This document shows, piece by piece, positions 15,082-59,297 of a stretch of 64,000 nucleotides of DNA. Both the position numbers and the translations under genes were made by a program. Every line of letters starts with the position of its first letter. The first letter of the stretch is position 1. This DNA comes from Pseudoxanthomonas dokdonensis (GTDB lineage: Bacteria; Pseudomonadota; Gammaproteobacteria; Xanthomonadales; Xanthomonadaceae): the NCBI RefSeq assembly GCF_001431405.1, contig NZ_LDJL01000006.1, positions 1 through 64,000 on the forward strand. Reading direction: 5' to 3'. The notes beneath the pieces were generated by a model. The model saw only the letters and a list, made by a program, of their open reading frames with translations. It ran no database searches and had not been told where the DNA came from.

Positions 15082-15320
15082 AGCCCCCTCCGCTGGCGGT
15101 CGCCTGCGCGTAACCGAACGCACCCCACCCGCAGCTGGCGCCCCGCCTCGCCTGCCGACGACCGGTTGTCCGTTTCCGCGCGCCGCAACCGTGAGAAGGG
15201 AAAACAGCCCGTCACCACGACGCATTGGAGGGACGGGCTGCGCAGGGGGAATGGCGGCTGCAGCGCAGCCTTGGATGCCCACCCACGGCGCGGCGCAATG
15301 CCCGCCCGGAGAACCTCACC

Positions 15321-17702: not shown

Positions 17703-17998
17703 TCCGCAATTCCAACATCACCTTCAACCGCTTCGAAGGTTCCGGCCCCCGCCAGACCTCCACCGACGTCGACTTTGGTGCGCCATTGAGCACCGCGGCC
17801 GCGATCCTGACCGGCTTCAACGCGAGCTTCTCTTCCAACGATGGCGACCATCACCTCGGCAACCTGGATGTCCGCCTGGATGCCGATGTGATCGGCAACG
17901 GCGTGCGCGTGACCGCCACGTTCGGGTTGCGCGACTGGAGCGGCAACTGGGACGACAAGTACGAAGGACAGATTTTCTTCGCGGTCGTCGGCGAATGA
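17696..17998 (+). CDS. Stand-alone copy of the metalloprotease N-terminal domain
   Basis: A 100-residue protein from ATG 17696, with AAGGAG 7 bp upstream and a 7-bp overlap with the protease gene, so it is probably translationally coupled. It aligns end to end with residues 1-100 of the upstream protease: IR near the start, the GSGPR block, DHHLG, and TATFGLRDWSG followed by WDD and Y.G. No signal peptide or membrane segment. The pattern of alternating hydrophobic residues suggests a small beta-sandwich, perhaps like H-type lectins, but that is a guess. It could be a partner subunit, a decoy or an inhibitor of the protease. Confidence 0.82.
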   Translation: MLIRNSNITFNRFEGSGPRQTSTDVDFGAPLSTAAAILTGFNASFSSNDGDHHLGNLDVRLDADVIGNGVRVTATFGLRDWSGNWDDKYEGQIFFAVVGE

Positions 17999-45837: not shown

Positions 45838-47424
45838 CTACTCTCCGGCCGGGGTGAAATGCAGATCCTGGTAGTCGTAACTGAAGTCTGCCAGCGGCGA
45901 CACCGCCTTCATGCGGATGCTGGCGACCTTGCCTTCGGCATCCAGGGCAAAGCTGACGTAGGCCGGTTCGATGGCACTGTCATCCCAGCGCGTGCGGAAA
46001 GTGTCGTACTGCCAGTGTTCCAGGTTGCCGGCCATGTTGGGTGTCTGCTGGAAATCGATCCGCAGCTTGCCGCCCTGTTCGCTGATGGTGATCGGCCCGT
46101 ACCACGGATCGACGTAACGGCCGGCATAGCCCGATGCGGGCAACGAAGGCCGCGACTGCTTGCGTGCCGCCTGGCCGCTGGCCTGCAGTGCCTGCAGTCC
46201 TGCGTCGAGTCGCTGCTGGTACCACTGGTCGAACGCGGCGACCCAGTCGCGTGGCGCGAATCCCAGATAGTGATCCAGCAGCTCGTAGCCCAGCCCGCGC
46301 ATGACCCCGACATCCTCGGCGTTGATCTGCAGCGAGATGCCCAGGTTGCGCTCCGGCACCAGCACGATGAAGGTCAGCACGCCAAACACCGCCCCGCCAT
46401 GCTGGACGACCTTGACCCCGCGGTAGTCCTGCACGTTCCAGCCCAGTGCATAGCTGGAAAACTGCGGCGTCATGTCGTTGATCGGTGCCGGGTACGGCGT
46501 GATCGGAATCAGCACCTGCGGCGTCCACATTTCCTGTGCCGAGGCCGCGCTGTAAAGGCGCTTGCCATCGCCATCGGGCAGCGCGCCCTGGCCCAGCTGG
46601 ATCTGCAGCCAACGGGCCAGATCATGGGCGCTGGAGGACAGGCCGCCGGCCGGTGCGCCGACCTGGCCCAGTCCTTCGCGTTCGGGCAACAGCTGCTGCT
46701 TGCCCAGCCCGCGCAGGCGCGGGTCCAGGCGCGCGTGCGGGTAGGCGCGATTGGGATTGGCGAAGCGATCGTTTTCGTCACTGACCGAATCCATCATGCC
46801 GGCAGGCCGCAGCACCCGGTCGCGCATGAAGCTTTCCCAGTCCTGCCCGCTGGCGGCGGCAATCACTTCACCGGCGACGATGTAGAGGATGTTGTCGTAG
46901 GCATAGCCGCTGCGGAAACTGGTGGCCGGCTTGATGTGGCGCAGGGCCTGGACGATGTCGCCGCGGCTGCGCGAACTGCGCGGGATGAACAGCAGATCGC
47001 CGGCGCCCAGTCCCAGCCCGCTGCGATGCACCAGCAGATCGCGGATGGTCATTTCGCGGGTGACCCAGGCGTCGTACATCTGGAACGTCGGCAGGTGATC
47101 GATCACCTTGTCGTCCCAGTCCAGCTTGCCTTCGTCGACCAGGATCGCCAGCGCCGCGGCGGTGAATGCCTTGCCGGTGGAACCGGTCGGGAAGATGGTG
47201 TCGGCATCCACCGCTTCCGCCGAACCCAGCCGGCGCACGCCGTAGCCCTGGGCCTTGGTGACCCTGCCGTCCTCGACGATGGCAATCGCCATGCCCGGCA
47301 CGTCGTGTTGCTTGAGTACCTGCTCGACGCGCTGGTCGAAACCCGGCGGCGGCGCTGCCGCGACCGGCGCGGCCAGGCAGGCGGCGACAATCAGCGTGGC
47401 GGTCAGTGAATGGATGCGACCCAT
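45838..47424 (-). CDS. Exported serine hydrolase (class C beta-lactamase/D-aminopeptidase fold)
   Basis: 528 residues from ATG 47424. Signal peptide 1-24 (APVAAA), beta-lactamase domain with nucleophile in STGK (Ser82, Lys85), a YDN-type second motif (in GYAYDNILY) and VVQHGGAVFG as third element, then a C-terminal domain of about 110 residues (DUF3471-like). Family members hydrolyse D-amino-acid peptides or esters; resistance to beta-lactams is not implied. Last gene of the TonB-receptor/dgcN unit, 11 bp from the transporter gene, so a role in releasing D-amino acids from peptides is a reasonable inference. Confidence 0.88.
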   Translation of the reverse strand: MGRIHSLTATLIVAACLAAPVAAAPPPGFDQRVEQVLKQHDVPGMAIAIVEDGRVTKAQGYGVRRLGSAEAVDADTIFPTGSTGKAFTAAALAILVDEGKLDWDDKVIDHLPTFQMYDAWVTREMTIRDLLVHRSGLGLGAGDLLFIPRSSRSRGDIVQALRHIKPATSFRSGYAYDNILYIVAGEVIAAASGQDWESFMRDRVLRPAGMMDSVSDENDRFANPNRAYPHARLDPRLRGLGKQQLLPEREGLGQVGAPAGGLSSSAHDLARWLQIQLGQGALPDGDGKRLYSAASAQEMWTPQVLIPITPYPAPINDMTPQFSSYALGWNVQDYRGVKVVQHGGAVFGVLTFIVLVPERNLGISLQINAEDVGVMRGLGYELLDHYLGFAPRDWVAAFDQWYQQRLDAGLQALQASGQAARKQSRPSLPASGYAGRYVDPWYGPITISEQGGKLRIDFQQTPNMAGNLEHWQYDTFRTRWDDSAIEPAYVSFALDAEGKVASIRMKAVSPLADFSYDYQDLHFTPAGE

Positions 47425-47435
47425 GGCAGGCTTCC

Positions 47436-48584
47436 TCACGAAGACGGAGTGGTGGAGGTGGAGGTGGTGATCAGGGCTGGCGGTGCTGGCTGTCGCCATA
47501 GTTGCCAGGCGCCCAGGCTGAGCAGCGGCAGCACGTACACGGCCAGCAGTACCCACGCCAGCAAACGATAGCCGTGCGCGATCAGCGCGATCAGGCCGAA
47601 ATGGTCGGCGACGAAGATCGATCCGACCAGCAGCACGCTGGCAATCAGCAGGCGCGCTGCCGCCGGCAGCGGCTTGCCGCTACGCGCCAGCCAACGCCCG
47701 GCCACGCGCTCGTTGATGGCATGCACCGCGCCGGTTCCGGTCTCCAGCAATGCCGAAAAGATCATCGCCTGGAACAGCAGATGGAACAGCGGCCGGTCCA
47801 GCCGCTGCAGCATGAAATCCGACGGCAGTGCCTGCTCGCCGATCTGCGGATACCAGCCGATCATGCAGACGAAGAACAGCAACGCCGGCAGCATCGCCAG
47901 CGGACCTGCGATGACACCGGCCACCCAGGCGTCGCGGCGGCGGATGAAATGCCGCGCCACCGGCAGGATCACCACCGCGGCCACCACGTTGTAGCTGGCG
48001 TATGCCAGGCCATCCAGCGCCCAGCCCGCTGCCGGTGGACCGGCGCTGGCGAAATTGTCCAGCACGCGGTCGCCGAACGAAGACAACGCCAGCAGCATGA
48101 ACGCCGCGTACACGCCGTACAGCAGCAGCGATGCCCATTTGAACAGCCGCTCGACCGAGCGATTGCCGAACGCGGTGAACGCACCGATGGCCACCATCAA
48201 CAACAGCGTGCCGGCGACGGTTGGCAGCCCGAACATCGCCTGCAGGATGGCGCCGGCGGCCGCGCCAATCACCGCCAGGATCAACACCAGAAACAGCAGA
48301 TAGGCCGCTTCGAACAACCACCAGCCCGGCCCCAGCAGGCGCTGGAAGAAACTGCGGTAGTCGAACGCGCGGGTCGCGTGGGCGAAAGCGAAGGTCAGCG
48401 CGCAGACCAGGCTCCAGATCAGCATCGCCAGCAGCATCCCCAGCAGGCCGCCGTAGGGTCCGCCGGGAAGGAAGAATTCCGCCAGTTCGCGACCGGTCGC
48501 GTAGCCGCCACCGATGACCACCGCCTTGAATGCCAGTCCCGGCAGCAACAAGCGCTGGAACCAGCTGGGCGTGGGCTCAGACAT
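47436..48584 (-). CDS. YkvI-like inner-membrane transporter
   Basis: 382 residues with about ten hydrophobic segments; opens with PGLAFKAVVIGGGYATGRELAEFF, within which GGGYATGRE is the conserved YkvI/LeuT-fold-type first helix motif. It ends in a Thr/Ser-rich tail. Substrate not determined. Located 9 bp after dgcN and 11 bp before the serine hydrolase, so amino-acid import or export (for example glutamate) in this pathway is an inference. Confidence 0.8.
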   Translation of the reverse strand: MSEPTPSWFQRLLLPGLAFKAVVIGGGYATGRELAEFFLPGGPYGGLLGMLLAMLIWSLVCALTFAFAHATRAFDYRSFFQRLLGPGWWLFEAAYLLFLVLILAVIGAAAGAILQAMFGLPTVAGTLLLMVAIGAFTAFGNRSVERLFKWASLLLYGVYAAFMLLALSSFGDRVLDNFASAGPPAAGWALDGLAYASYNVVAAVVILPVARHFIRRRDAWVAGVIAGPLAMLPALLFFVCMIGWYPQIGEQALPSDFMLQRLDRPLFHLLFQAMIFSALLETGTGAVHAINERVAGRWLARSGKPLPAAARLLIASVLLVGSIFVADHFGLIALIAHGYRLLAWVLLAVYVLPLLSLGAWQLWRQPAPPALITTSTSTTPSS

Positions 48585-48593
48585 CGCGCGGCA

Positions 48594-49646
48594 TCAGCCC
48601 AGGCACTGCCGCAGCAACTGCTCGAACGCCGGTCCGCCACGCATCGGGTCGGCGACCGCGCAGCCCAGCCGCTGGCTCTCGCTGTCCAGCAACGCCGCGG
48701 CGCTGGCCGGATCCAGTTGCGAGGTATCCAGGCTGACCCCGCCGCAGCGGATGCCGGCGCGGGTGCGCTGTCCCAGTTGCAGGGCCAGGGCAATGGTGTC
48801 TTCTATGCTCGGCAAGGGATAGGCCGGATAGCCGAGCATGTGTCGTCGCCCCGGCTGGTGGCAGATCACCACCACGTCCGGCTGGCTGCCGTGCAGCAAG
48901 GCCAGCGCGACCCCGGCGTAAGCCGGATGGAACAGCGAGCCCTGGCCTTCGATGACGTCCCAGTGATCCTCGGCAGCGGCCGGCGACAGCATTTCGGCCG
49001 CGCCGGCGGCGAAGTCCGAGACCACTGCATCCATCGGCATGCCACGGCCGGCGATCAGGATCCCGGTCTGGCCGCTGGCGCGGAAATCGACATCGACGCC
49101 GCGTTCGGCAAATGCCCTGGCCAGCGCCAGCGCGGTGTACTTCTTGCCCAGCGCGCAATCGGTACCCATCGTCAGCAGGCGCTTGCCGCTGCGTGGCGCA
49201 CCCGTGGCCACGGCGATGCCGGGCGGCGGCACGCGCACGTCGATCAACTGGCGGCCGAGCGCATCGGCGGCCTCGCGCAGGCGCGCGATGCTGGCAATCC
49301 GCACGTGCATGCCACTGATGATGTCGAGTCCGGCATGCAGTGCCTGCAACAACGGTTCGATCCAGCTCTCCGGTATCACTCCGCCGGCATTGGCGACACC
49401 GATCACCAGTGAACGCGCGCCACGCGCGGCCGCCTGCTGCGGGGTCATTGCCGGCAAACCGGCGCTGACCGTGCCGCCGGCACAGCGGAATTCGCCGATG
49501 CAACGTTGCGGCGCCCAGTCACGCAGGCCGAACGCGGTCTTGGCATAACCCGGCTCGCTGATATCCCCCAGGAACAGCAGGTGCGGGCTGGGCAGCAGCG
49601 GCAGGGCCGGTGGCGTTGGCAGGGGCGGCAAGCTCGATGGCAGCAT
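48594..49646 (-). CDS. dgcN: DgcN-like D-glutamate N-acetyltransferase (DUF1611 family)
   Basis: 350 residues from ATG 49646; an upstream TTG (49715) would add 23 Pro-rich residues. LLFLGDISEPGYAKTAFGL opens the DUF1611 N-terminal domain, and MGTDCALGKKYTA is the C-terminal P-loop-like motif. In known pathways DgcN acetylates D-glutamate and DgcA epimerises the product to N-acetyl-L-glutamate. The dgcA-like gene lies about 5.6 kb away under a matching promoter, which strengthens this call. Between TonB receptor (92 bp upstream) and ykvI-like gene (9 bp). Confidence 0.82.
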   Translation of the reverse strand: MLPSSLPPLPTPPALPLLPSPHLLFLGDISEPGYAKTAFGLRDWAPQRCIGEFRCAGGTVSAGLPAMTPQQAAARGARSLVIGVANAGGVIPESWIEPLLQALHAGLDIISGMHVRIASIARLREAADALGRQLIDVRVPPPGIAVATGAPRSGKRLLTMGTDCALGKKYTALALARAFAERGVDVDFRASGQTGILIAGRGMPMDAVVSDFAAGAAEMLSPAAAEDHWDVIEGQGSLFHPAYAGVALALLHGSQPDVVVICHQPGRRHMLGYPAYPLPSIEDTIALALQLGQRTRAGIRCGGVSLDTSQLDPASAAALLDSESQRLGCAVADPMRGGPAFEQLLRQCLG

Positions 49647-49738
49647 CGCGACGGTCTTCACCTGGGCGTGATCGGGGAACGCCGGCTCCGCGAGGGGGGC
49701 CGGCAAGGGCGGCAAGGCAGCAGCGAGCGTCGCCGTGC

Positions 49739-52087
49739 TCAGAACCGGAAATCGATTTCCATGCCGTAGGTGCGCGGCCGGATCGGCACGCCGGCGACCT
49801 GCACACGGGTGCCGGACAGTGCACCGTCGAGCGCGGTCAACGAAGACCAGGCGTGTTCGTTGGTGACGTTGTTGGCATACACGCGCAGCTCCCAGGCGCC
49901 TTTGCCGATGCCGGCATACAGGTCCAGCGCCTGGTAGCCGTCCAGCTTCAGCGGCGCGGTGATCTGCTCGTCGAGGATCACCGAGGCGTCGCCCGGCGCG
50001 GTGATGCGCTGGCGCTGGGTGGTGTCGTTGAACTGGTCGTCGACGCCGCGCAGCGAGGCGCCGATCTGGCCGTTGTAGCCACCGTTAGTGGCAAACGCAT
50101 ATTCGGTGTTCAAAGTCCACGACAGTTCCGGCGAATAAGGAATGCGGTCGCCGGCCAGACCGGTGTTGAGGACCACGTCGAAGTCGCCCTGCGGCACCAC
50201 GGTGGGGTCGAAGTCGTTCTTCACCGTGGCATCGGTATAGGCCAGGTTGAAACCGATCGTCCACGCATCGGTGGCCCGGAACTGGGTGGTCAGTTCGGCG
50301 CCTTCGCTGGTCGCTTCACCACCGTTGACCAGGCCGCCGATGCCGTTGAACGAGGACGCGACCTGGATGTCTTCCCAGTCGATGCGGAATGCGGCGACGT
50401 CGATCTGCACGCGGTTGTCGGCGAACTGCGATTTCAGGCCCAGCTCGTAGCTGTCGAGCATCGAGGAATCGACCTGCGGCGGAATCCCCGGCAGCGCCAC
50501 GTTGGGACCGCCCGGCTGGTAGCCGGTCGCCACCCGCGCATACAGCAGGCTGTCTTCTCCGAGCTTGAACTGCGGGCTCAGGCTCCAGGTGAACACGTCT
50601 TCGCTGGATTCGCCGGGGGTGTTGGCAATCGGCGCCAGGATGCCGGCGGGGACGTTCTGGCTGAAGCTCTGCTCGTTGCGCGCCTGGCGCACGCCGGCAT
50701 CGATCTTGAAGCGCTCGCCCAGTCGCAGCGAGCCATTAGCGAACACCGCGGTTTCCTTGTAGGTGCTGGGCAGGTTGATGATCGCCAGGGTGCCGAACAT
50801 CTCGTCGTACGGGGCGGGCAACGGCGAGCCGTCACGCTGGCCTAGCCAGGCGAACTGGCTCTGCAGTGCGTCCTCCTTGGTGTAGAAGGTGCCGACCATC
50901 CATTCGAACGCGCCCTCGCCTTTCGAGGTCAGACGGAATTCCTGGGTGAACTTGTCCAGATCAAAATCGTAGCGGGTGAAAGAGCTGCCCGGTTCCGGCA
51001 GGCCCAGCAGCAGGTCGGCGACTTCGCCGAACGGAATGGTGGTGTCGAGCTGGGTGCTGGTATCGGTCTGCGACCAGCCACTGGCGGAGACGAAATCGGC
51101 CCAGCCCAGATCCCAGTCCACGCTCAGCGCGGCCAGGGTGAAGTCCTTGTGGAACGGCTGCGGCTGCCAGGTGCGATCGACGTTGTCGCCGAACAGTGGC
51201 TCGAGCGTGTCCGGGTCCAGCGCGGTGCCGGCGCGGTCGTTGGCGTTGATGCGCTGGTTGATCAGCGACAGATCGACATCGACGCTATCGCCATCCCAGG
51301 CCAGCGCGGCACGTGCGCCGGTCTGCTGGGAATCATTGACGTCGCGGCGGCCACTGATGACGTTGTCGGTATAGCCCGGCAGTTCATTGCGGGCAAAGCT
51401 GACCCGCAGTCCCAGCCGATCTTCCTTCAGCGGCAGGCTGGCGCCGACCCGGCCGTTCCAGCTCTCGCCACCGTCCTGCACCGTGCGCAGGCCGAGGCCG
51501 ACCCGCAGCTCGTCGCCGCTCAGATCCGGAGCGCGGGTGACGTACTTGAGCAGGCCGCCAATCGCACCGGCGCCGTACAGCGTGCCCTGCGGTCCGCGCA
51601 GCACTTCGACCCGGCTGATGTCGTACGGCAGCAGGTCCAGCATCAGGGTGTTGGCGGCCTGGTAGATACCGCTGGAGCCGACCGGTACTTCATCGACATA
51701 GGTGGCGACGGTGGCGCTGGAGGACATCGCCGAGATGCCGCGCAGCGATACCGAGGTCTGGCCCGGCGTCCCATCGTCCTGCACCTGCAGGCCCGGGATC
51801 AGCGCGGCGTAGTCGGCCAGTGAACTGGAACCCAGGTTTTCCAGCTGGCGTTCGCCGACCACGCTGATCGAGGCGGCCACGTCGCGGACGTTCTCGATGC
51901 GCTTGTTGGCGGTCACCACCACCGTGTCCAGGGTCGCGGCACGTTGCGCCGCGCTGGCCTCGTCAGGTGCCGTGTCCTGCGCGTCCTGTGCCGACACCGG
52001 ACTGGCGAGCGAACAGGCCAGGGTGGCGGCGATGGCGAGCGACAACGGCGAGCGATACCACGGGCGGTTGGACTGGAACACGTTCAT
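49739..52087 (-). CDS. TonB-dependent receptor of the D-amino-acid locus
   Basis: 782 residues. Signal peptide (to about residue 33, PVSAQ), TonB box LDTVVVTA, plug domain (about 60-170; RVEVLRGPQGTLYGAGAIGG), 22-strand barrel with C-terminal Phe (EIDFRF). ATG at 52087, about 80 nt downstream of the predicted transcription start. First gene of the unit with dgcN, ykvI-like and serine hydrolase genes. Ligand probably a peptide or peptidoglycan fragment carrying D-residues; this comes only from context. Confidence 0.93.
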   Translation of the reverse strand: MNVFQSNRPWYRSPLSLAIAATLACSLASPVSAQDAQDTAPDEASAAQRAATLDTVVVTANKRIENVRDVAASISVVGERQLENLGSSSLADYAALIPGLQVQDDGTPGQTSVSLRGISAMSSSATVATYVDEVPVGSSGIYQAANTLMLDLLPYDISRVEVLRGPQGTLYGAGAIGGLLKYVTRAPDLSGDELRVGLGLRTVQDGGESWNGRVGASLPLKEDRLGLRVSFARNELPGYTDNVISGRRDVNDSQQTGARAALAWDGDSVDVDLSLINQRINANDRAGTALDPDTLEPLFGDNVDRTWQPQPFHKDFTLAALSVDWDLGWADFVSASGWSQTDTSTQLDTTIPFGEVADLLLGLPEPGSSFTRYDFDLDKFTQEFRLTSKGEGAFEWMVGTFYTKEDALQSQFAWLGQRDGSPLPAPYDEMFGTLAIINLPSTYKETAVFANGSLRLGERFKIDAGVRQARNEQSFSQNVPAGILAPIANTPGESSEDVFTWSLSPQFKLGEDSLLYARVATGYQPGGPNVALPGIPPQVDSSMLDSYELGLKSQFADNRVQIDVAAFRIDWEDIQVASSFNGIGGLVNGGEATSEGAELTTQFRATDAWTIGFNLAYTDATVKNDFDPTVVPQGDFDVVLNTGLAGDRIPYSPELSWTLNTEYAFATNGGYNGQIGASLRGVDDQFNDTTQRQRITAPGDASVILDEQITAPLKLDGYQALDLYAGIGKGAWELRVYANNVTNEHAWSSLTALDGALSGTRVQVAGVPIRPRTYGMEIDFRF

Positions 52088-52160
52088 CTCTGCTCTCCCC
52101 GGAACTTCGATTCGGTTGGCTTGCGGGCCGCGGCAAGGCGCGGCAATGGGCGCGAACTAC

Positions 52161-52202
52161 ATCCTGATTAGGGATAATGGTCCTAATCAGAAAATTGTCA
52201 AC
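52161..52202 (-). promoter_or_regulatory. Promoter with overlapping inverted-repeat operator, copy 1
   Basis: On the minus strand: -35 TTGACA (52201-52196), 16-bp spacer, -10 CATTAT (52179-52174). A perfect inverted repeat CTGATTAGG / CCTAATCAG (52164-52172 and 52182-52190, 9-bp spacer) embraces the -10 box, so a bound dimer should block RNA polymerase. The 29-bp core 52174-52202 matches copy 2 at 27 positions. Confidence 0.82.
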
Positions 52203-52229
52203 ATGTTTGGAAAATCAGTTTGCCGGCGG

Positions 52230-53927
52230 TCATGGCTGCGCCGGCCCGCGCCAGCCCGGCCCGCGCACCACCCGGCCCGGCTTGGCCCCGGTGTGCTGGC
52301 CCTCATGCAGCACCTGTACGCCATTGACGAAGACCTCGTCGACGCCGCTGGCGTACTGCTGCGGCCGGGCATAGGTGGCGTGGTCGGCGATGGCGGCCGG
52401 GTCGAACACCACGATGTCGGCGAAGCAACCCGGTGCCAGGCAGCCGCGGTCCTTGAGCTTCCAGTTGCCGGCCGGCAATCCGGTCAGCCGATGGATGCCT
52501 TCCTGCAGCGTCATCAACTTGCGGTCGCGCACGTAGTGGCCGAGAAAACGGGCGAAGTTGCCGTACGCGCGCGGGTGGGTGCTGGATTTCAGGAATACGC
52601 CCTCCGGGGCCGACGATTCGGCATCCGAACCCAGGCTGACCCACGGCTGCTTCAATCCCAGTTCGACGTTTTCCTCGCTCATCAGGAAATACGCCGCGCC
52701 AATCCGCTGGTCTTCGATGATCAGATCGATCAGGGTGTCCTCGGCAGAGGTACCGCGCTCGGCGGCGACGTCGGCCAGGCTCTTGCCAAGCAGTGGTTTC
52801 AGCTTTTCACTCTTGAACTCAATCAGCAGCACCCGCTCATCGGAACCGGCCAGTTGACGGATGTTTTCCCATGACGGCGCGGGATCGCGCATCTCGGCGA
52901 TCACTTTGGCCCGGGTCGCCGGATCCTTGAGCCGGGCCACCATCTGCTCCGGACCACCGGCCTGCACCCACGGTGGCAGGCCGGCGGTCAGGCCAGTGCC
53001 ACCGGCGGTGTACGCGTACATGTCGGCGCTGATCTTGAGGCCCTGATCGCGCGCGGCCTGGATCCGATCGATGGCCTGGCTCATCTTCGGCCAGTTCTTT
53101 TCACCGGCGGCCTTCAGGTGATAGACCTCGGCACGCTCGCCGGTCGCCTTGCCGATGGCGATGGTTTCATCCAGCGCTTCGAGGAAACGATCGGCCTCGC
53201 TGCGCATGTGGGCGATGTAACCACCACCGGATTCGGCCGCCGCCCGCGCCAGCGCGGTCAATTCGTCGCCATCGGCAAACGTCGCCGGCGGATAGATCAG
53301 CGATGCGCCCACCCCCAGCGCACCCTCCTCCATCGCCTGGCGGACCAGATCCTGCATCCGTGCCAGTTGCGCGGCATCGGGCTTGACGTCGTCTTCGCCC
53401 AGTTCGTGGATGCGCACGGTGGTGGCGCCGACGAACGAAGCCACGTTCGGCGTGACTCCACGCGACTGCAGCAGTTCGAGGTAGTCGCCCAGCGTGGTCC
53501 AGTCGATCGGATAACGGATGTCGCCCTGTTGCTTCAGCGCATCGATCTTCATCTGATCGGTGTACGGCCCCATCGACCAGCCTTCGCCGAACACTTCCAG
53601 GGTCACGCCCTGCCTGGTGTCGCTGACGCCACGGCCGTCGGCCACCAGCGAGTCGACCGCCCAGCTCAGCATGTTGATGAAGCCCGGCGACACCGCGCGA
53701 CCATGCGCATCGAGGGTCCGGGTGGCGTTGGCTTTCGCCCCTTGCGGCAGCAGCGCGGCGATGCGGTCGCCGCGCACCGCCACGTCGACCTGCTGCGGCG
53801 GTGCGCCGCTGCCGTCATAGACCACCCCATTGCGAATCAGCAGGTCATACGGTGGTTCCGGTGCCTGCGCGGCGGCGCCGTGGCTGGCCAGTGCCAGTAC
53901 GATCAATGCAGACAACGGACGCAGCAT
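52230..53927 (-). CDS. N-acyl-D-amino-acid deacylase-like amidohydrolase, exported
   Basis: 565 residues with a signal peptide (1-20, AAAQA). Amidohydrolase beta-barrel related to D-aminoacylase, which removes acyl groups from N-acyl-D-amino acids. The early metal motif HxH after SPGF is absent (SPGFINMLSW), and the Cys-containing GNCG loop is replaced by FGEGWS. Later elements are kept: YIAHMRSE, EVYHLKAAG, and the Asp in SLGSDAES. It may use a different metal arrangement or substrate. ATG at 53927. Last gene of the upstream unit, 13 bp after the transporter gene. Confidence 0.82.
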   Translation of the reverse strand: MLRPLSALIVLALASHGAAAQAPEPPYDLLIRNGVVYDGSGAPPQQVDVAVRGDRIAALLPQGAKANATRTLDAHGRAVSPGFINMLSWAVDSLVADGRGVSDTRQGVTLEVFGEGWSMGPYTDQMKIDALKQQGDIRYPIDWTTLGDYLELLQSRGVTPNVASFVGATTVRIHELGEDDVKPDAAQLARMQDLVRQAMEEGALGVGASLIYPPATFADGDELTALARAAAESGGGYIAHMRSEADRFLEALDETIAIGKATGERAEVYHLKAAGEKNWPKMSQAIDRIQAARDQGLKISADMYAYTAGGTGLTAGLPPWVQAGGPEQMVARLKDPATRAKVIAEMRDPAPSWENIRQLAGSDERVLLIEFKSEKLKPLLGKSLADVAAERGTSAEDTLIDLIIEDQRIGAAYFLMSEENVELGLKQPWVSLGSDAESSAPEGVFLKSSTHPRAYGNFARFLGHYVRDRKLMTLQEGIHRLTGLPAGNWKLKDRGCLAPGCFADIVVFDPAAIADHATYARPQQYASGVDEVFVNGVQVLHEGQHTGAKPGRVVRGPGWRGPAQP

Positions 53928-53940
53928 GGTCGTTACTCCT

Positions 53941-55224
53941 TCAAGCGGGATCAGGGAGATTGCGTATCGGTCGATCCAGCCGCCACAGCAGCGCCGCGGC
54001 GACCAGCGCCAGCAGCGACAGGATCAGGAAGAAACCGGCATGGCTGGCCTGCGACCACAGCGTGCCGACCAGGCCGGCCAGCAGGCTGCCGCTGAAGATC
54101 GCCAGGAACCACGACGCCACCGTGGTCGCGCCCATCCGCGGCGGCGCCAGCTTGGCGAACAGGCCAAGTCCAGTCGGCAGGATGTACAGCTCGCCGAGGG
54201 TCAGCACCACGAAGAACGCCACCACCCACCACCAGCCAACCCGTGCGTCACCCGCCAGCGCGGTCAGCACGGCCAGCAACAGGTACGCGGCAGCCACCAG
54301 CAATGCGCCGATCGCCATCCGCATGCCCGGCGATGTCTCGCGGCCGGCCTCGGCGCGGCGACGCCACGCCATCAGCAGCACCGGCGTCAATGAAATCACC
54401 AGCAGCGGATTCAACGACTGGAACCAGGTCATCTTGATCTCGATGCCGGCCAGCTGGCGATCGACGCCACTGTCAATCCACAGCGGCAAGGTGTTGCCAA
54501 TCTGCTCGTAGGCACCACGGAAAATGGTCGCGGCGATGCCTACTCCCAGCAGCAGCCACCACACGTTGCGATGGTTGCCGCGGGGTTCAGCCGGATCGCG
54601 GACGGCCGCGCGTGTGGGCGCGGCTTCGACCGGCAGGTAGCGTTTGCCGGCCAGGTAGATCAGCAGGCCGGCGAACATGCCGATGCCGGCCGCGCCGAAA
54701 CCGTAGTGCCAGCCGTAGACTTCGCCCAGCGTGCCGCAGACCAGTGGCGCCATCACCCCGCCGATGTTGAGGCCGACGTAGTACACGTTGTAGGCGCGGC
54801 CACGGCGCGGATCATCGGCGCGATAGAGATCATTGATCTGGCTTGGCAGGCTGGGCAGGAACAAACCATTGCCCAGCGCAATCACCGACAGCGCCAGGTA
54901 GAACATCGGTTCGAACGCCATCAGGAAGTGGCCGGCGGCCATGATGCTGGCGCCAATCACCACCGCCTTGCGCTTGCCCAGCCAACGGTCGGCGATGGCA
55001 CCACCGAGGATCGGCGTGAAGTACGCCATGGCGGTGTAGGTGCCGTAGATGAAGGAGGCTTTTTCCTGTGCGAACAACAGGTGCTTGGTCATGTAATAGA
55101 CCAGCAGCGTGCGCATGCCGTAATAGGAAAACATCTCCCACATGTTGGTCAGGAACAGGATGGTCAGCCCGCGTGGCTGGCCGAACCAGGTCTTCTCGCC
55201 CGCTGCCGCCATCGCCGTGCTCAT
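53941..55224 (-). CDS. POT/PTR-family peptide transporter-like protein with altered proton motif
   Basis: 427 residues, about 12 membrane segments. POT-family features: WEMFSYYGMRTLLVYYM in helix 1, GGAIADRWLGKR loop, VYYVGLNIGGVMAPLV. The proton-coupling ExxER of helix 1 reads NMWEM, with Asn and Met in place of the first Glu and the Arg. This suggests a changed coupling or substrate. Its ATG overlaps the dgcA stop by ATGA (55221-55224), so both are coupled. Probable cargo: short peptides or muropeptide fragments. Confidence 0.88.
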   Translation of the reverse strand: MSTAMAAAGEKTWFGQPRGLTILFLTNMWEMFSYYGMRTLLVYYMTKHLLFAQEKASFIYGTYTAMAYFTPILGGAIADRWLGKRKAVVIGASIMAAGHFLMAFEPMFYLALSVIALGNGLFLPSLPSQINDLYRADDPRRGRAYNVYYVGLNIGGVMAPLVCGTLGEVYGWHYGFGAAGIGMFAGLLIYLAGKRYLPVEAAPTRAAVRDPAEPRGNHRNVWWLLLGVGIAATIFRGAYEQIGNTLPLWIDSGVDRQLAGIEIKMTWFQSLNPLLVISLTPVLLMAWRRRAEAGRETSPGMRMAIGALLVAAAYLLLAVLTALAGDARVGWWWVVAFFVVLTLGELYILPTGLGLFAKLAPPRMGATTVASWFLAIFSGSLLAGLVGTLWSQASHAGFFLILSLLALVAAALLWRLDRPIRNLPDPA

Positions 55225-56234
55225 GCGTGGGTCCGCGGCCCCCAGACCTCGTCGCCGCAGTGGATGTAGCCGTCTTCATAGCGCACCGATGGCGAGCGAT
55301 CCTGGCGCAGGAAGATCGGGCCATCCAGATCGACCACATCGCAGAACTGGCCGAGCACGAACGCCGGCGCCGCAGCCAGGCTGGTGCCACACATGTTGCC
55401 GACCATCACCTGCTTGCCCAGTTCGCGTGCACGCCTGGCCATCAGCAGGCCTTCGCTCAGTCCACCGCATTTGTCGAGCTTGATGTTGATGACATCGAAG
55501 CGATGATGGCGCTGTTCCAGTTCGGCCAGATCCAGGATGCTCTCGTCGGCAGCGAATGGCAGCGCGCGCTCGATCCCGTCCAGATCCGATTCGCGACCCC
55601 GTACGCACGGTTGCTCGAGCAGCGACACTCCGGTTTCGACCAGCGCCGGCAGCAGCAACGGCAATGTCGCCGCGTCGTAGCCCTGGTTGGCATCCACGCC
55701 AATCCAGGCGTCCGGGCAACGCAGGCGTACCGCGCGCACGCGCGCACCATCGAGATCCGGATCACCGGTCAGCTTGAGCTTCAGCGCACGCGCCTGGCGA
55801 TAGGCCGCGGCGCGCTCGGCCATCACCGCCGGTTCATCGGCGCCGACGGTAAACGTGGTCAGCAGCCCGCGTACGCTGTCGAGCCCGGCCAGCTGCCAGA
55901 CCGGCACGCCACGCTGCTGCGATTCGAGTTCCCACAGCGCACAGTCCAGTGCATTGCGGGCGCCGCCGGCGGGCAGCAGCGTACGCAGCTGTTCGCGATC
56001 CAGGCCGGCCTCGATGCGCGGCCGCAATGCTTCCAGGGTCGCGATCATCGTCTCCGGATGATCGTGGTTGTAGTAGACCCCGGCCGCCTCGCCGCGGCCG
56101 ACATGCGGGCCCTGGCGCAGGGTGACCACGGTCGCCGGCATCGCTTCGAATACGTGGCCGGCGATGCGGAACGGCGCCGACATCGGCAACGGTTCGTTAT
56201 GCAGTTCGAGTTGGACGGGCACGGTCGCGGTCAC
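55221..56234 (-). CDS. dgcA: DgcA-like N-acetyl-D-glutamate racemase / L-Ala-D/L-Glu epimerase (enolase superfamily)
   Basis: 337 residues from GTG 56234, with GAGG 6 bp upstream. Enolase-superfamily catalytic set of the MLE/dipeptide-epimerase type: Lys152-x-Lys154 (LKLKLTG), metal ligands Asp181 (DANQGY), Glu207 (EQP), Asp230 (ADES), and the second base in NIKLDKCGG (Lys252/Lys255). The DxD of dipeptide epimerases appears as VDLDG, so either N-acetyl-D-Glu or L-Ala-D-Glu could be the substrate. The dgcN-like gene in the companion unit favours the first; the POT gene would suit the second. Confidence 0.85.
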   Translation of the reverse strand: MTATVPVQLELHNEPLPMSAPFRIAGHVFEAMPATVVTLRQGPHVGRGEAAGVYYNHDHPETMIATLEALRPRIEAGLDREQLRTLLPAGGARNALDCALWELESQQRGVPVWQLAGLDSVRGLLTTFTVGADEPAVMAERAAAYRQARALKLKLTGDPDLDGARVRAVRLRCPDAWIGVDANQGYDAATLPLLLPALVETGVSLLEQPCVRGRESDLDGIERALPFAADESILDLAELEQRHHRFDVINIKLDKCGGLSEGLLMARRARELGKQVMVGNMCGTSLAAAPAFVLGQFCDVVDLDGPIFLRQDRSPSVRYEDGYIHCGDEVWGPRTHA

Positions 56235-56300
56235 GCATACCTCGGGCAGGGCAAGCCATGGACAGGGCGGCCGGCACAGTGCCGGCCGCACACGGATCAA

Positions 56301-58313
56301 TCAGTAGTAGGCGCCGTAGCCGATGACGTGCTGGGCCAGGCCGATCCACAGCAGGAACAGGCACGACAGTGCGATCAGCACCGCCCACAACCTGGCCAGC
56401 CACTTGCGCTTGGCGCGCAGCACCTGCCACGCATTCCACAGCGACAGCAGTGCGCCCAGCGGCAGCACCACGGTGGCGAACAGGCGCAGCAGGTTGATCC
56501 AGATGTCCGAGCCGGGGCCGGTCATTTCCAGATCACCGAGCATCGCGACCACGAAGCCCAGCGTGCCGCCAATCGACAGCAGTACCGCCAGCGCGGTCAG
56601 GCGGATGATGCGGTGGGCACGGGCATCACTGCCCGACAACCGGTACGGCACGCCGTAATAGCGACGGACCAGGGCCGACACCGGCCAGGCGATGACGGTC
56701 AGCAGCAACACCGCCAGACTGGCGATCAACAGCGGCAAGGCCAGCGAGCGCCACGTCGACAGGCGTTCGAACACCATGATCGGCGCGTACGGCTCCATCG
56801 AGAAGCGCACCACCTTGCCGTCGACCACGTCGGCGGCCAGGCGATCGCTGCCGTCCACGTCCTGCCACAGGTAGGGCGAAATCTCGCGCCACTTCTTCGG
56901 CACGCCGTTGGCACCCAGTGCCATTGGCACGCTGATGGTGCCGTCCTCGTTGGCAATCACCTTGACCTGGCCAAGCAGATTGACCAGCGACAGCAGATTG
57001 CTCTGTGGGCGACGGCTGCTGTCGTAGTGGCCAACCATCTGCTGCGCGTGCTGCCGCGCAAGCGCCGCATCCAGCGCTTGTGGACGCTTGCCACTGCCCG
57101 GCAGGTAGCGGTCGGCGAAGCTACGGACCAGCGCGCCACGGATCTGGCCGGTGGCGCCGTCGCGGCCACTGCTGTTCATCGAAACGAAAATACCGATGCC
57201 ATCGTCGAGGAACAGCTCCAGCTCGCTGTGGAACCACATGGTGTCGCCGCCATGGGCGATCGCGCGGTGGCCGTTGACGCTGGTTTCGTAGAAGCCGAGC
57301 ATCATCCTGTTCAACGGACCGACCGATGCCTGTCCGGTCGAATGCATCTTGCGCGCGGTATCAGCGCCAAGGATGCGTGCATCGCCATAGGCGCCGTCCT
57401 GCAGGTGCGCGATCATGAATCGCGCCATGTCGGTGCCGGTGGCAGCCAGGCTGCCGGCCGGCGCCAGGCTGATGAATTCGTAATCCTTGGGCTTGCCGTC
57501 GGAGGCCTTGGCGTAACCCTTGCTCATGTTGGCCAGCAGCGCCGGCTGCAACGGCTGGCTGAAGCTGGAATGCTGCATGCCCAGCGGCTTGAAGATGTGG
57601 TTGGCGATGTAGGCGTCAAACGCTTCACCGGAAGTGCGCTGCACGATGTAGCCGGCCAGCGCGGTGGCGTAGTTGGAATAGGCCGGTGTCTTGCCGGGCA
57701 CGTGGATGCGTTCGGGCACCCAGCGCTTGAGCGCATCGCCCAGCGGCACGATTTCATCGGCATGCGAGGTGATCAACCCGCGGATCTGTTCTTCCATGCC
57801 GGTGGTGTGGGTCATGATCTGGCGCAGGGTGACCGGCTTGCCATCGCGCGCCGGCACCTTGAAATCGATGTACTGGTTGACGTCGGCATCCAGATCCAGC
57901 TTGCCCTGTTCGACCAGTTGCATCACCGCGGTCCAGGTGAACAGTTTGGATACCGAGCCGGGCCGGAACAGCGTCTTCTGCGGTACCACCGGTGCGCGTG
58001 TTTCCAGGTCGGCATAACCGTAGCCCTTCTGCAGCAGGATCTGGCCGTCCTTGACCACCACCACCACGGCCCCGGCGATGTCGCCATTGGCCAGCGCGTA
58101 AGGCAGATAACCATCCAGCCAGGCTTCGACATCGGCACCGGTCAGTGCCGGCACCGCGCCGTCTTCGCTGGCCGCCGGCAATGGCGTGGCCGGCGCCACC
58201 GGCGTAGCCGGCGGCAGCGCGTCCGGCGACAGTGCGGCCTCCTGCGCCGTCATGCCGTTCGCACCCCCTGCGAACAGCAACAAACCACACAACACGAACG
58301 GAATCACGCGCAT
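56301..58313 (-). CDS. Membrane-anchored serine hydrolase (beta-lactamase/D-aminopeptidase fold)
   Basis: 670 residues from ATG 58313. Signal peptide, Pro/Ala-rich linker (to about 55), then the catalytic domain with SVSK (Ser120, Lys123), YSN (212-214) and AHGGDT. The C-terminal 200 residues hold four predicted membrane helices, unlike the soluble relative at 45838-47424. Likely cleaves D-amino-acid-containing peptides in the periplasm. First gene after promoter copy 2, 66 bp upstream of dgcA; an in-frame start at 58343 is less likely since it precedes the signal peptide. Confidence 0.88.
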   Translation of the reverse strand: MRVIPFVLCGLLLFAGGANGMTAQEAALSPDALPPATPVAPATPLPAASEDGAVPALTGADVEAWLDGYLPYALANGDIAGAVVVVVKDGQILLQKGYGYADLETRAPVVPQKTLFRPGSVSKLFTWTAVMQLVEQGKLDLDADVNQYIDFKVPARDGKPVTLRQIMTHTTGMEEQIRGLITSHADEIVPLGDALKRWVPERIHVPGKTPAYSNYATALAGYIVQRTSGEAFDAYIANHIFKPLGMQHSSFSQPLQPALLANMSKGYAKASDGKPKDYEFISLAPAGSLAATGTDMARFMIAHLQDGAYGDARILGADTARKMHSTGQASVGPLNRMMLGFYETSVNGHRAIAHGGDTMWFHSELELFLDDGIGIFVSMNSSGRDGATGQIRGALVRSFADRYLPGSGKRPQALDAALARQHAQQMVGHYDSSRRPQSNLLSLVNLLGQVKVIANEDGTISVPMALGANGVPKKWREISPYLWQDVDGSDRLAADVVDGKVVRFSMEPYAPIMVFERLSTWRSLALPLLIASLAVLLLTVIAWPVSALVRRYYGVPYRLSGSDARAHRIIRLTALAVLLSIGGTLGFVVAMLGDLEMTGPGSDIWINLLRLFATVVLPLGALLSLWNAWQVLRAKRKWLARLWAVLIALSCLFLLWIGLAQHVIGYGAYY

Positions 58314-58388
58314 CGCTTCGTCCCCCGGAGCTGGTGATGGCAAGTCGTGCCAGCGTCCGGCATCTAGCCAGCGCCAACAGGTTGACTT

Positions 58389-58431
58389 ATCCTGATGCGG
58401 CCATAATGGTCCTAATTAGAGAATTGTCAAC
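58389..58431 (-). promoter_or_regulatory. Promoter with operator, copy 2 (divergent region)
   Basis: Minus-strand -35 TTGACA (58430-58425), 16-bp spacer, -10 CATTAT (58408-58403). The 29-bp core 58403-58431 matches copy 1 at 27 positions, and both copies are preceded by ATCCTGAT. The right arm CCTAATTAG is kept (58411-58419, containing the palindrome CTAATTAG) while the left arm reads CTGAT then diverges. It serves the hydrolase-dgcA-POT-deacylase unit and lies in the gap before the divergent regulator gene. Confidence 0.82.
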
Positions 58432-58568
58432 CATGCCAGATGACCTGCCCGGTAGCCGTTTGCGACAGGGCTTTGGTGCCACGCAGCTTTGCTTCGCCTG
58501 CTGGCCGGGGTAATGATGAGCCTGGACAGGACGCTTTAGACTTCCGCAGATACCCGGAGACCCCACGG

Positions 58569-59297
58569 ATGACCTCACAACACCCCACCATCGGCGGACT
58601 GCTGCGTGCGCTGCGCGCCCGCAAGGGCTGGACGCTCAAGCAGATGAGCCAGCATTCCGGCATTCCGCTGTCGACGCTGTCCAAGGTCGAGCATGATCGC
58701 CTGACCCTGACCTACGACAAGCTGCTGCAACTGGCCCAGCGCCTCAACCTGCGCATGTCGGAACTGTTCGCCGAGCAGGACGATACCCCCGAGCCGGCGG
58801 TCACCGCCCGCCGCAGCATCGGCCGCATCGAAGACGCCATCCGCGTCAACACGCCCAATTACGACTATTACTACCTGTGCCCGGAGCTGCGCCGCAAGCG
58901 CATGATCCCGGTGTTGACCCGGGTCCGGGCCAAGACCATCGCCGAATTCGGCGAACTGGTCCACCACTCCGGCGAGGAATACATCCACGTGCTCGAGGGC
59001 CGTGCCGAGGTCCACACCGAGTTCTATGACCCGATCATCCTGGAAGCCGGGCAGTCGGTGTACATCGATTCCAACATGGGCCACGCCTACATCGCCGCCG
59101 AAGGCTGCGAGGAAGTGCTGCTGCTGGGCGTGTGCTCGAGCACCGATGAACACCTGCTGGAGTCGTTGATGACCCTGCATGGCGACGAGCTGGCCGCGCA
59201 GCAACCGCCATCGACCGCCAGGCAAGCCGCTGGCGAGGCGGTGTCCAGGCCCAGGGCCGTGCGCAAGACGCCGGCCAGCACCCGCAGGAAAGCCTGA
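58569..59297 (+). CDS. XRE-family transcriptional regulator with C-terminal cupin
   Basis: 242 residues from ATG 58569. HTH_XRE domain (about 8-62: GLLRALRARKGWTLKQMSQ, STLSKVEHDRLTLT), a linker, then a cupin fold (about 150-215; HSGEEYIHVLEGRAEVHTE) and a Lys/Arg/Ala-rich tail. Cupin-type XRE regulators bind small metabolites. Divergent from the dgcA unit, so it is the obvious candidate for the protein that reads the two matching operators. A longer in-frame start upstream is unsupported by ribosome site. Confidence 0.9.
   Translation: MTSQHPTIGGLLRALRARKGWTLKQMSQHSGIPLSTLSKVEHDRLTLTYDKLLQLAQRLNLRMSELFAEQDDTPEPAVTARRSIGRIEDAIRVNTPNYDYYYLCPELRRKRMIPVLTRVRAKTIAEFGELVHHSGEEYIHVLEGRAEVHTEFYDPIILEAGQSVYIDSNMGHAYIAAEGCEEVLLLGVCSSTDEHLLESLMTLHGDELAAQQPPSTARQAAGEAVSRPRAVRKTPASTRRKA

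What the first reader, a model, noticed from the sequence alone, without database searches (positions are those of the whole stretch)
45838..59297. Two-unit D-amino-acid/D-glutamate locus with receptor, transporters, hydrolases, epimerase and regulator
Eight leftward genes fall in two units (TonB receptor, dgcN-like, YkvI-like transporter, serine hydrolase; and membrane serine hydrolase, dgcA-like, POT-like transporter, deacylase) under matching promoters with a divergent XRE-cupin regulator. DgcN and DgcA are known to convert D-glutamate via N-acetyl-D-Glu to N-acetyl-L-Glu. What seems new is the whole chain in one place: outer-membrane uptake, periplasmic release by two D-peptide-type hydrolases and a secreted deacylase, inner-membrane entry, then inversion. 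It would let the cell live on D-residues from peptidoglycan or D-peptides.
Basis: partly seen in the sequence, partly recalled or inferred. Interest (0 to 1): 0.88.

Follow-up and report, generated by a model that had tools for sequence, protein, structure and literature searches.

The report
Probable D-peptide utilisation gene cluster
A bacterial gene cluster that looks built to take up peptides containing mirror-image (D-) amino acids, cut them outside the inner membrane and flip the released residues inside; it resembles a known D-glutamate pathway, but its racemase lacks arginines that the known enzymes keep, so it may work on other D-amino acids.

Summary
The anatomy is real. Eight leftward genes lie in two units under near-identical promoters, with a divergent XRE-cupin regulator. 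The promoter core ATTAGGACCATTAT occurs exactly twice in the 3.55 Mb genome, both times here; at one promoter it lies in a perfect inverted repeat. The cassette recurs in Xanthomonadaceae, Steroidobacteraceae, Sphingomonadales and Caulobacterales; the operator was found in the first three.

The D-glutamate reading is weaker. Both DgcN- and DgcA-like proteins score below NCBIfam's cut-offs, while a separate canonical dgcN-dgcA locus with GltS in the same genome scores above them. The window-type enzymes form their own clade. Their racemase keeps every catalytic residue but has Gly where canonical DgcA have Arg (82 of 82 aligned against 8 of 8) and Tyr or Phe at a second Arg site (83 of 83 against 8 of 8). 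The first site matches B. subtilis epimerase Arg24 with a one-residue gap.

Best reading: a D-peptide utilisation cassette whose acylate-then-racemise pair was retuned to non-glutamate, probably neutral or aromatic, D-residues. The substrate is inferred, not shown.

The parts
45838..47424 (-). S12 serine hydrolase (S12a), PF00144 + DUF3471, hydrophobic N-terminus; ORF runs to 47556
   Evidence: SxxK/YxN/HGG motifs intact; start at codon 45 is inferred
47436..48584 (-).
   Evidence: no Pfam/NCBIfam hit; model pLDDT 92.4, top fold matches AdiC, with LAT1, BasC and other LeuT-fold carriers
48594..49715 (-). DgcN-like DUF1611 protein, window-type subfamily (true start may be 49646)
   Evidence: PF07755+PF17396; NCBIfam DgcN 430.6 bits, cut-off 480; own clade; PDB 7xrj 321 bits
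49739..52087 (-). TonB-dependent outer-membrane receptor
   Evidence: PF00593+PF07715
52164..52190 (.). perfect 9-bp inverted repeat (CTGATTAGG/CCTAATCAG, 9-nt spacer) in the TonB-receptor promoter; putative XRE-cupin operator
   Evidence: single place in the whole genome, reversed control 0
52196..52201 (-). -35-like TTGACA of unit 2
52230..53927 (-). D-aminoacylase-like amidohydrolase, probably exported, lacking the HxH metal motif, E/H/H/D retained
   Evidence: PF07969; PDB D-aminoacylase 1rjp 252 bits, N-acyl-D-Glu deacylase 3gip 223 bits; motif table
53941..55224 (-). POT-family oligopeptide:H+ symporter
   Evidence: PF00854, TIGR00924 above cut-off
55221..56300 (-). DgcA-like enolase-superfamily racemase/epimerase with Gly48/Tyr77/Asn302 in place of Arg/Arg/Cys
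   Evidence: NCBIfam DgcA 337.7 bits, cut-off 400; model pLDDT 92.4, best fold 4gfi, then 1jpd
56301..58313 (-). S12 serine hydrolase with C-terminal membrane block (S12b); ORF runs to 58343
   Evidence: PF00144; membrane helices about 528-676; motifs intact
58403..58416 (-). operator core ATTAGGACCATTAT of unit 1, between S12b and the regulator
58425..58430 (-). -35-like TTGACA of unit 1
58569..59297 (+). XRE-cupin regulator, divergent (ORF from 58440)
   Evidence: HTH_3/HTH_31 + Cupin_2; best NCBIfam PuuR, far below cut-off

Best explanation
The locus is a self-regulated cassette for feeding on D-amino-acid-containing peptides or N-acyl-D-amino acids. The TonB receptor brings the substrate into the periplasm (inferred). 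The two S12 hydrolases cut at D-residues, and the probably exported D-aminoacylase relative, replaced or joined in many relatives by an M19 dipeptidase, frees a D-residue at the other side of the bond (inferred from family). The POT carrier imports small peptides and the APC-fold carrier free amino acids (inferred). In the cytoplasm the DgcN-type enzyme N-acylates the D-residue and the DgcA-type enzyme inverts the N-acyl product, which a general deacylase turns into an L-amino acid. If the D-aminoacylase is outside the membrane and the acyltransferase inside, the two do not form a futile cycle. Relative to the canonical pair in the same genome, this pair has been retuned away from glutamate towards neutral, perhaps aromatic or branched, D-residues. 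The XRE-cupin protein controls both promoters through an inverted repeat overlapping -10, most simply as a repressor lifted by a pathway ligand (inferred). Shown by sequence: gene content, shared operator unique in the genome, cross-class conservation, separate clade, loss of both loop arginines with catalytic residues kept.
For: Gene families. Operator at exactly the two promoters; in relatives 48 hits in 39 of 80 loci against 5 in the reversed control, 29 nearest S12b; 56 of 67 hits with a -35, in 44 of 104 sources. Co-occurrence: of 100 loci, 81 have 7.5 kb on each side of DgcN; in these S12b 74, DgcA 72, TonB receptor 64, transporter 60, S12a 56, regulator 54, M19 46, deacylase 40, POT 29; 64 have deacylase or M19 (the 81 include three third-subtype loci and two loci held twice). 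DgcN distances track those of DgcA, S12b, TonB receptor, regulator, transporter, S12a (r 0.61-0.78, permutation maxima 0.12-0.27; not corrected for species relatedness). Canonical locus in the same genome above both cut-offs, with GltS; a GltS relative lies at 9 of 14 canonical loci and 0 of 100 window-type or third-subtype loci. Clade support W 95, C 97 (quick tree). Racemase: K174, K176, D203, E229, D252, K274, D324, D326 in 83 of 83; position 48 G 82, one gap, against R 8/8; position 77 Y 82, F 1 against R 8/8; position 302 N 82/83 against C 8/8. Both arginines are kept in E. coli YcjG and six named DgcA of Vibrio (3), Sphingobium, Rhodococcus, Pantoea. The loop Arg of the own YkfB-type epimerase pairs with the canonical DgcA Arg over a one-residue gap and aligns with B. 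subtilis AEE Arg24, while 3jva, 3q45 (D-Ala-L-Val complex) and 2p88 (N-succinyl Arg/Lys racemase) have Gly there. A Leu/Phe/Trp-dehydrogenase-type gene lies near the cluster in 8 of 105 sources, 5 genera.
Against: No substrate was measured. Arg in this loop is not strictly tied to Glu: the L-Arg-D-Lys epimerase 3rit has it and the B. thetaiotaomicron epimerase solved with L-Ala-D-Glu (3iji) shows no aligned Arg. In the MAFFT alignments the YkfB-type Arg falls one column beside position 48, so that equivalence depends on gap placement; the YcjG one does not. The window type gained Arg234 (78 of 83), which could replace a lost anchor. DgcN also lost two arginines (68, 294), but so did a third subtype (L123, L126, L128) whose DgcA keeps the first loop Arg, so the changes are not strictly coupled. 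No cytoplasmic N-acyl-L-amino-acid deacylase is in the cassette. The deacylase has lost HxH (31 of 31 sequences of 57% or more, window included). The operator was not found in 41 of 80 loci. Canonical carriers vary too (an ABC importer in Pantoea). The dehydrogenase neighbours are few, and 4 of the 8 are one genus. The 80 loci were chosen by similarity to the window DgcN.
Confidence: 0.5

Rival explanations
1. One reading: the cassette is a second D-glutamate route (D-Glu, N-acetyl-D-Glu, N-acetyl-L-Glu), fed by D-Glu-containing peptides or muropeptides, with glutamate held by other residues such as Arg234.
For: DgcN and DgcA families are known for D-Glu (passages of PMC10845958 and PMC12363236); full-length homology and catalytic residues kept; deacylase is kin to N-acyl-D-Glu deacylase 3gip.
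Against: Below both curated cut-offs while a canonical pair in the same genome is above them; two loop arginines lost across the subfamily; no GltS relative at 100 window-type or third-subtype loci against 9 of 14 canonical ones; the deacylase is closer to D-aminoacylase 1rjp, though so is the canonical one.
Confidence: 0.2
2. The DgcA-like enzyme epimerises imported L-X-D-Y dipeptides directly (fed by POT), and the DgcN-like protein serves free D-residues or another acyl acceptor; the two are not consecutive steps.
For: The DxD motif that binds a dipeptide's amino end in dipeptide epimerases (recalled) is invariant, D324/D326; POT overlaps dgcA by 4 bp; PGAP names three plasmid relatives 'dipeptide epimerase'.
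Against: Canonical DgcA keeps the same DxD motif; only 29 of 81 loci have POT while 72 have DgcA; DgcN and DgcA distances track each other.
Confidence: 0.15
3. The cassette destroys D-residue-containing peptide antibiotics (nonribosomal lipopeptides), with the membrane S12 peptidase as the resistance enzyme and catabolism secondary.
For: S12 peptidases with membrane blocks are known as D-stereospecific resistance peptidases (recalled) and S12a's solved relatives include ClbP; the mlr degradation gene set uses a serine protease MlrB (S12: recalled), a transporter MlrD and a D-aminoacylase MlrF (PMC6256522 whole text; PMC6563193 passages).
Against: A TonB receptor, two carriers and a racemase pair point to import and use, not only removal; none of the nine window genes is an efflux pump by Pfam or NCBIfam best hit. 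PADLOC was not searched.
Confidence: 0.1

Closest known systems
DgcN-DgcA D-glutamate catabolic pathway (Yu et al. 2023 ISME J; not held, content recalled; reference seen in PMC12363236)
   Same: Same two enzyme families; N-acylate-then-racemise logic; catalytic residues kept
   Different: Separate clade below both NCBIfam cut-offs; loop arginines lost; XRE-cupin instead of LysR; APC-fold and POT carriers, no GltS; two S12 hydrolases; a canonical copy exists elsewhere in the same genome
N-succinylamino acid racemase pathway for irreversible D-to-L conversion (Sakai et al. 2006; title seen in the reference list of PMC8762209, content recalled)
   Same: Enolase-superfamily racemase acting on N-acyl amino acids in a three-step D-to-L route; Gly in the loop of 2p88
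   Different: Racemase from another branch; acyltransferase is DUF1611, not the GNAT partner recalled for that route; TonB/S12/D-aminoacylase context
L-Ala-D/L-Glu epimerase YcjG/YkfB (AEE)
   Same: Fold (1jpd next after the three 4gfi chains), two lysines, metal ligands and DxD
   Different: Loop Arg replaced by Gly; a YkfB-type enzyme already sits beside NlpC/P60 and RpiR genes in this genome
mlr microcystin-degradation gene set (mlrC-A-D-B-E-F)
   Same: Serine protease, transporter and D-aminoacylase kinds of gene acting on a peptide (that microcystins hold D-residues is recalled)
   Different: No MlrA or M81 MlrC kind among the nine window genes; no DgcN/DgcA, TonB receptor or XRE-cupin in what I read of mlr; sequences were not compared

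Membership tests
DgcN (NCBIfam NF041892, equivalog) | score at or above curated cut-off 480 | tested here: not met
   430.6 bits; own-genome canonical copy 509; no score between 467.4 and 491.7 over 297 family genomes
DgcN (NCBIfam NF041892, equivalog) | DUF1611 N and C domains, P-loop-like GTDC..GK intact | tested here: met
   PF17396 and PF07755; invariant columns G184, D186, C187, G190, K191
DgcA (NCBIfam NF042940, equivalog) | score at or above curated cut-off 400 | tested here: not met
   337.7; canonical copy 424
DgcA (NCBIfam NF042940, equivalog) | two catalytic lysines, three metal ligands | tested here: met
   K174, K176, D203, E229, D252, K274 in 83 of 83
DgcA (NCBIfam NF042940, equivalog) | Arg in both capping loops as in canonical members | tested here: not met
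   G 82 (one gap) and Y/F 83 of 83 against R 8/8 and R 8/8
DgcN-DgcA D-glutamate pathway | activity on D-Glu and N-acetyl-D-Glu | not testable with these tools
   needs enzyme assays
S12 D-stereospecific peptidases | SxxK, YxN, HxG motifs | tested here: met
   both proteins; these motifs are shared with beta-lactamases and esterases, and D-specificity itself is not testable here
D-aminoacylase (1rjp type) | HxH plus Cys, His, His, Asp metal set (recalled) | tested here: not met
   HxH replaced by LSW and the Cys not aligned in 31 of 31 sequences of 57% or more; Glu, two His and Asp kept
mlr gene set | MlrA and MlrC kinds of gene in the cluster | tested here: not met
   none of the nine window proteins hits CAAX-protease or M81 families; the rest of the genome was not searched for them

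The most novel reading that the evidence does not exclude
A widespread, so far unnamed pathway ('dgc-type 2') in which environmental Gammaproteobacteria and Alphaproteobacteria import D-peptides through a dedicated TonB receptor and invert neutral or aromatic D-amino acids by N-acylation and racemisation, using a DUF1611/DgcA pair retuned from D-glutamate, under a private XRE-cupin operator that has stayed readable across two classes.
Probability: 0.35. Interest if true: 0.7.

Novelty: new variant of a known kind. Interest (0 to 1): 0.52.

Why it matters
D-amino acids and D-peptides are thought of as slow-turnover organic matter. If this cassette handles non-glutamate D-residues, many 'DUF1611' plus 'dipeptide epimerase' annotations in soil and freshwater bacteria are a second D-residue route that surveys counting dgcN as a D-glutamate gene would misread, and the two paralogous pairs in one genome give a natural experiment on how an acyltransferase-racemase pair changes its side-chain specificity.

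Tried and rejected
Rejected: that the pair is simply the genome's D-glutamate pathway (a canonical pair exists). Rejected as a discriminator: closeness of the deacylase to D-aminoacylase versus N-acyl-D-Glu deacylase, because the canonical locus's deacylase gives the same order. Rejected: strict coupling of the arginine losses in DgcN and DgcA, broken by the third subtype. Rejected: NCBIfam score alone as a subtype label; L123, L126 and L128 score like the window type but form a third clade, and L116 scores over the DgcN cut-off (491.7) with mixed residues and a window-like DgcA. Rejected: calling the M19 proteins lipoproteins throughout; only 26 of 48 ORFs show a lipobox-like N-terminus by a loose pattern. 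Inconclusive: no DgcA ORF in 9 of 81 loci; tblastn found only a partial hit in L076. Led nowhere: a PDB relative naming the TonB receptor's ligand (siderophore, haem, B12 and colicin receptors); a held paper stating the role of Arg24 (that it binds the Glu side chain is recalled from Klenchin et al. 2004, whose reference I saw in PMC5808125); BLASTP of the two epimerase types, which did not reach the loop in one pairing. PADLOC and PHROGs were not searched. The tree is the quick one; the careful search did not finish. Papers: PMC10845958, PMC12363236, PMC6563193, PMC5852478, PMC8142540, PMC5808125 passages only; PMC8762209 one reference-list passage; PMC6256522 whole text; Yu et al. 2023 not held.

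Full report
What is there. The window belongs to a 3.55 Mb genome most likely of the genus Pseudoxanthomonas: the 'same genus' genome G063 has a contig of 167,849 bases, the length of NZ_PDWT01000006.1 of P. yeongjuensis, and the two give the same DgcN. The 'YkvI-like' protein has no Pfam or NCBIfam hit; its model (pLDDT 92.4) best matches AdiC, and the list holds LAT1, BasC and other LeuT-fold carriers, mostly at TM 0.5-0.7.

Regulation. The two promoters share TTGACAATT-Y-TCT-R-ATTAGGACCATTAT. At the TonB-receptor promoter the site is a perfect inverted repeat, CTGATTAGG-9-CCTAATCAG, found once in the genome with no reversed-control match. The core ATTAGGACCATTAT occurs exactly twice in the genome, at the two promoters, with four more places at two mismatches against three for the control. 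In 80 related loci the 13-base core gave 48 hits at up to 2 mismatches, in 39 loci, against 5 in the reversed control; 29 are nearest S12b, 6 the TonB receptor, 5 lie inside the regulator gene (coding, not promoters), 8 are nearest DgcN or DgcA or unassigned. In 104 sources 56 of 67 hits had a -35-like TTGAC, in 44 sources; consensus TTGACAATTcTCtaATtAGGAtCATTAT. These 44 are Xanthomonadaceae, Sphingomonadales and Steroidobacteraceae; the two Caulobacterales loci have none. Overlap with -10 suggests repression; that is inference.

Conservation. One scan of genome contigs with the window DgcN gave 117 relatives, of which the best 80 were kept; 20 more loci, 17 window-type and 3 of a third subtype, came from the same family. 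The order regulator / S12b-DgcA-[POT]-[deacylase]-TonB receptor-DgcN-transporter-S12a recurs, with rearrangements, in Xanthomonadaceae, Steroidobacteraceae, Sphingomonadales and Caulobacterales. Of the 100 loci, 81 have 7.5 kb on both sides: S12b 74, DgcA 72, TonB receptor 64, transporter 60, S12a 56, regulator 54, M19 dipeptidase 46, deacylase 40, POT 29. Assignments are by best BLAST hit among paralogues; 'deacylase' includes distant relatives and opposite-strand genes; the 81 include the three third-subtype loci and two loci held twice (L009/L129, L012/L122). The M19 protein is Pfam PF01244; 26 of 48 M19 ORFs show a lipobox-like N-terminus. Sixty-four of 81 loci have M19 or deacylase. Complete or nearly complete cassettes lie on large plasmids, typed non-mobilizable, of Croceicoccus marinus, Sphingobium yanoikuyae (no POT, a dipeptidase instead of the amidohydrolase) and Novosphingobium (no second serine hydrolase annotated); there PGAP names the DgcN-like protein only 'DUF1611 domain-containing' and the DgcA-like 'dipeptide epimerase', while canonical copies are named DgcN and DgcA.

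Not the canonical D-glutamate pair. The same genome has a second DUF1611 gene at C32, in a locus with DgcA (424 bits, cut-off 400), DgcN (509, cut-off 480), GltS, a LysR regulator, a D-aminoacylase relative, a TonB receptor and an S12 hydrolase. The window copies score 337.7 and 430.6. Over 297 genomes of the family, 63 have a DgcN-like gene at E <= 1e-60; 14 have one over the cut-off, 10 of these also have one below it, and 49 have only sub-cut-off copies; no score lies between 467.4 and 491.7. In a quick tree of 117 DgcN the window type (99 rows) and canonical type (15) are each one side of a branch with supports 95 and 97; a third small clade (3) joins the window type. A GltS relative lies at 9 of the 14 canonical loci fetched and at none of 100 window-type or third-subtype loci; other canonical loci have other carriers.

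Residues. In 83 window-type DgcA (window and L116 included, duplicates not removed) the catalytic lysines, metal ligands and DxD motif are invariant, but position 48 is Gly in 82 with one gap (Arg in 8 of 8 canonical and 3 of 3 third-subtype), position 77 Tyr 82 or Phe 1 (Arg in 8 of 8 canonical, Tyr in 3 of 3 third-subtype) and position 302 Asn 82 of 83 (Cys in canonical and third subtype). In the model, 48 is in the turn between two early strands and 77 in the loop before the first long helix of the N-terminal domain; such capping loops set specificity in this superfamily (recalled). Six named canonical DgcA and E. coli YcjG keep both arginines. The own YkfB-type epimerase has its loop Arg opposite the canonical DgcA Arg over a one-residue gap in BLASTP, though one column beside it in MAFFT, and it aligns with B. 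subtilis AEE Arg24. E. faecalis 3jva, C. hutchinsonii 3q45 and the B. cereus N-succinyl Arg/Lys racemase 2p88 have Gly there, but the L-Arg-D-Lys epimerase 3rit has Arg and the B. thetaiotaomicron epimerase 3iji, solved with L-Ala-D-Glu, no aligned Arg. A T. maritima relative acts on L-Ala-D/L-Phe, -Tyr and -His, so the family does change its second residue (PMC5808125, passage). DgcN lost Arg at 68 and 294 as well, but the third subtype breaks strict coupling, and the window type gained Arg234 in DgcA. So: loss of two arginines kept by canonical enzymes is shown; that they anchor glutamate, and hence a non-glutamate substrate, is inferred.

Other context. A Leu/Phe/Trp-dehydrogenase-type gene (best NCBIfam tryptophan dehydrogenase ScyB, below cut-off; glutamate dehydrogenase models far weaker) lies near the cassette in 8 of 105 sources (four Sphingopyxis, Croceicoccus, Erythrobacter, Croceibacterium, Aquisalinus), with a close Lrp-type regulator in 6 of these 8. 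The 20 genomes tested hold 0-7 matches to the wide ELFV family each, some genes counted in two pieces. This points to hydrophobic end products but is only suggestive. The deacylase lost HxH in 31 of 31 sequences of 57% identity or more (window included) while keeping Glu, two His and Asp, resembling the single-metal arrangement recalled for NagA. If it is exported, as its N-terminus suggests by eye, it would not undo the cytoplasmic acylation.

Literature. No held paper describes this cassette under the terms tried. The canonical pathway appears in passages of PMC10845958 and PMC12363236, the latter saying dgcN is the key gene for acidic D-amino acids and their amides. The mlr set for microcystin shares kinds of gene but was not compared by sequence.

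Verdict. Anatomy confirmed and strengthened; D-peptide or D-amino-acid utilisation likely (about 0.8 as a broad statement, my judgement); D-glutamate as the substrate unlikely (0.2); a retuned non-glutamate acylation-racemisation pathway the best single reading (0.5).

Noticed in passing
L123, L126, L128 (DgcN about 9.0-10.9 kb): A third DgcN subtype paired with a DgcA that keeps the first loop Arg but has Tyr at the second site; genome G063 carries all three subtypes (L110, L128, L129).
   Followed up: partly
window 47436-48584; L009, L010, L011, L014, L127, L129, L133: In these close relatives the transporter is only 47-49% identical to the window's while most neighbouring genes are about 66-88%, as if the transporter gene had been swapped inside the cassette.
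   Followed up: partly
L145 8001-10861 (Mesorhizobium conjugative plasmid): A DgcA-like dipeptide epimerase beside an M81 metallopeptidase (MlrC's family, recalled) and an ABC importer.
   Followed up: no
L142 5001-5987 (Rhodococcus opacus linear plasmid): A gene annotated DgcA next to an MFS transporter with no DgcN annotated in the 11 kb shown.
   Followed up: no
L008 59-3458 (G000:C1): YkfB-type L-Ala-D/L-Glu epimerase between an SH3-NlpC/P60 peptidase and an RpiR/SIS regulator: probably muropeptide recycling.
   Followed up: partly
window 42890-45523: A long ORF that reads like a LigD-type DNA ligase (recalled, no search run) with a run of KAT repeats in its linker.
   Followed up: no
window 15225-17998: Two adjacent + strand ORFs (825 and 106 aa) contain similar stretches near their starts (SLNFPRMRGSGP and NITFNRFEGSGP).
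   Followed up: no
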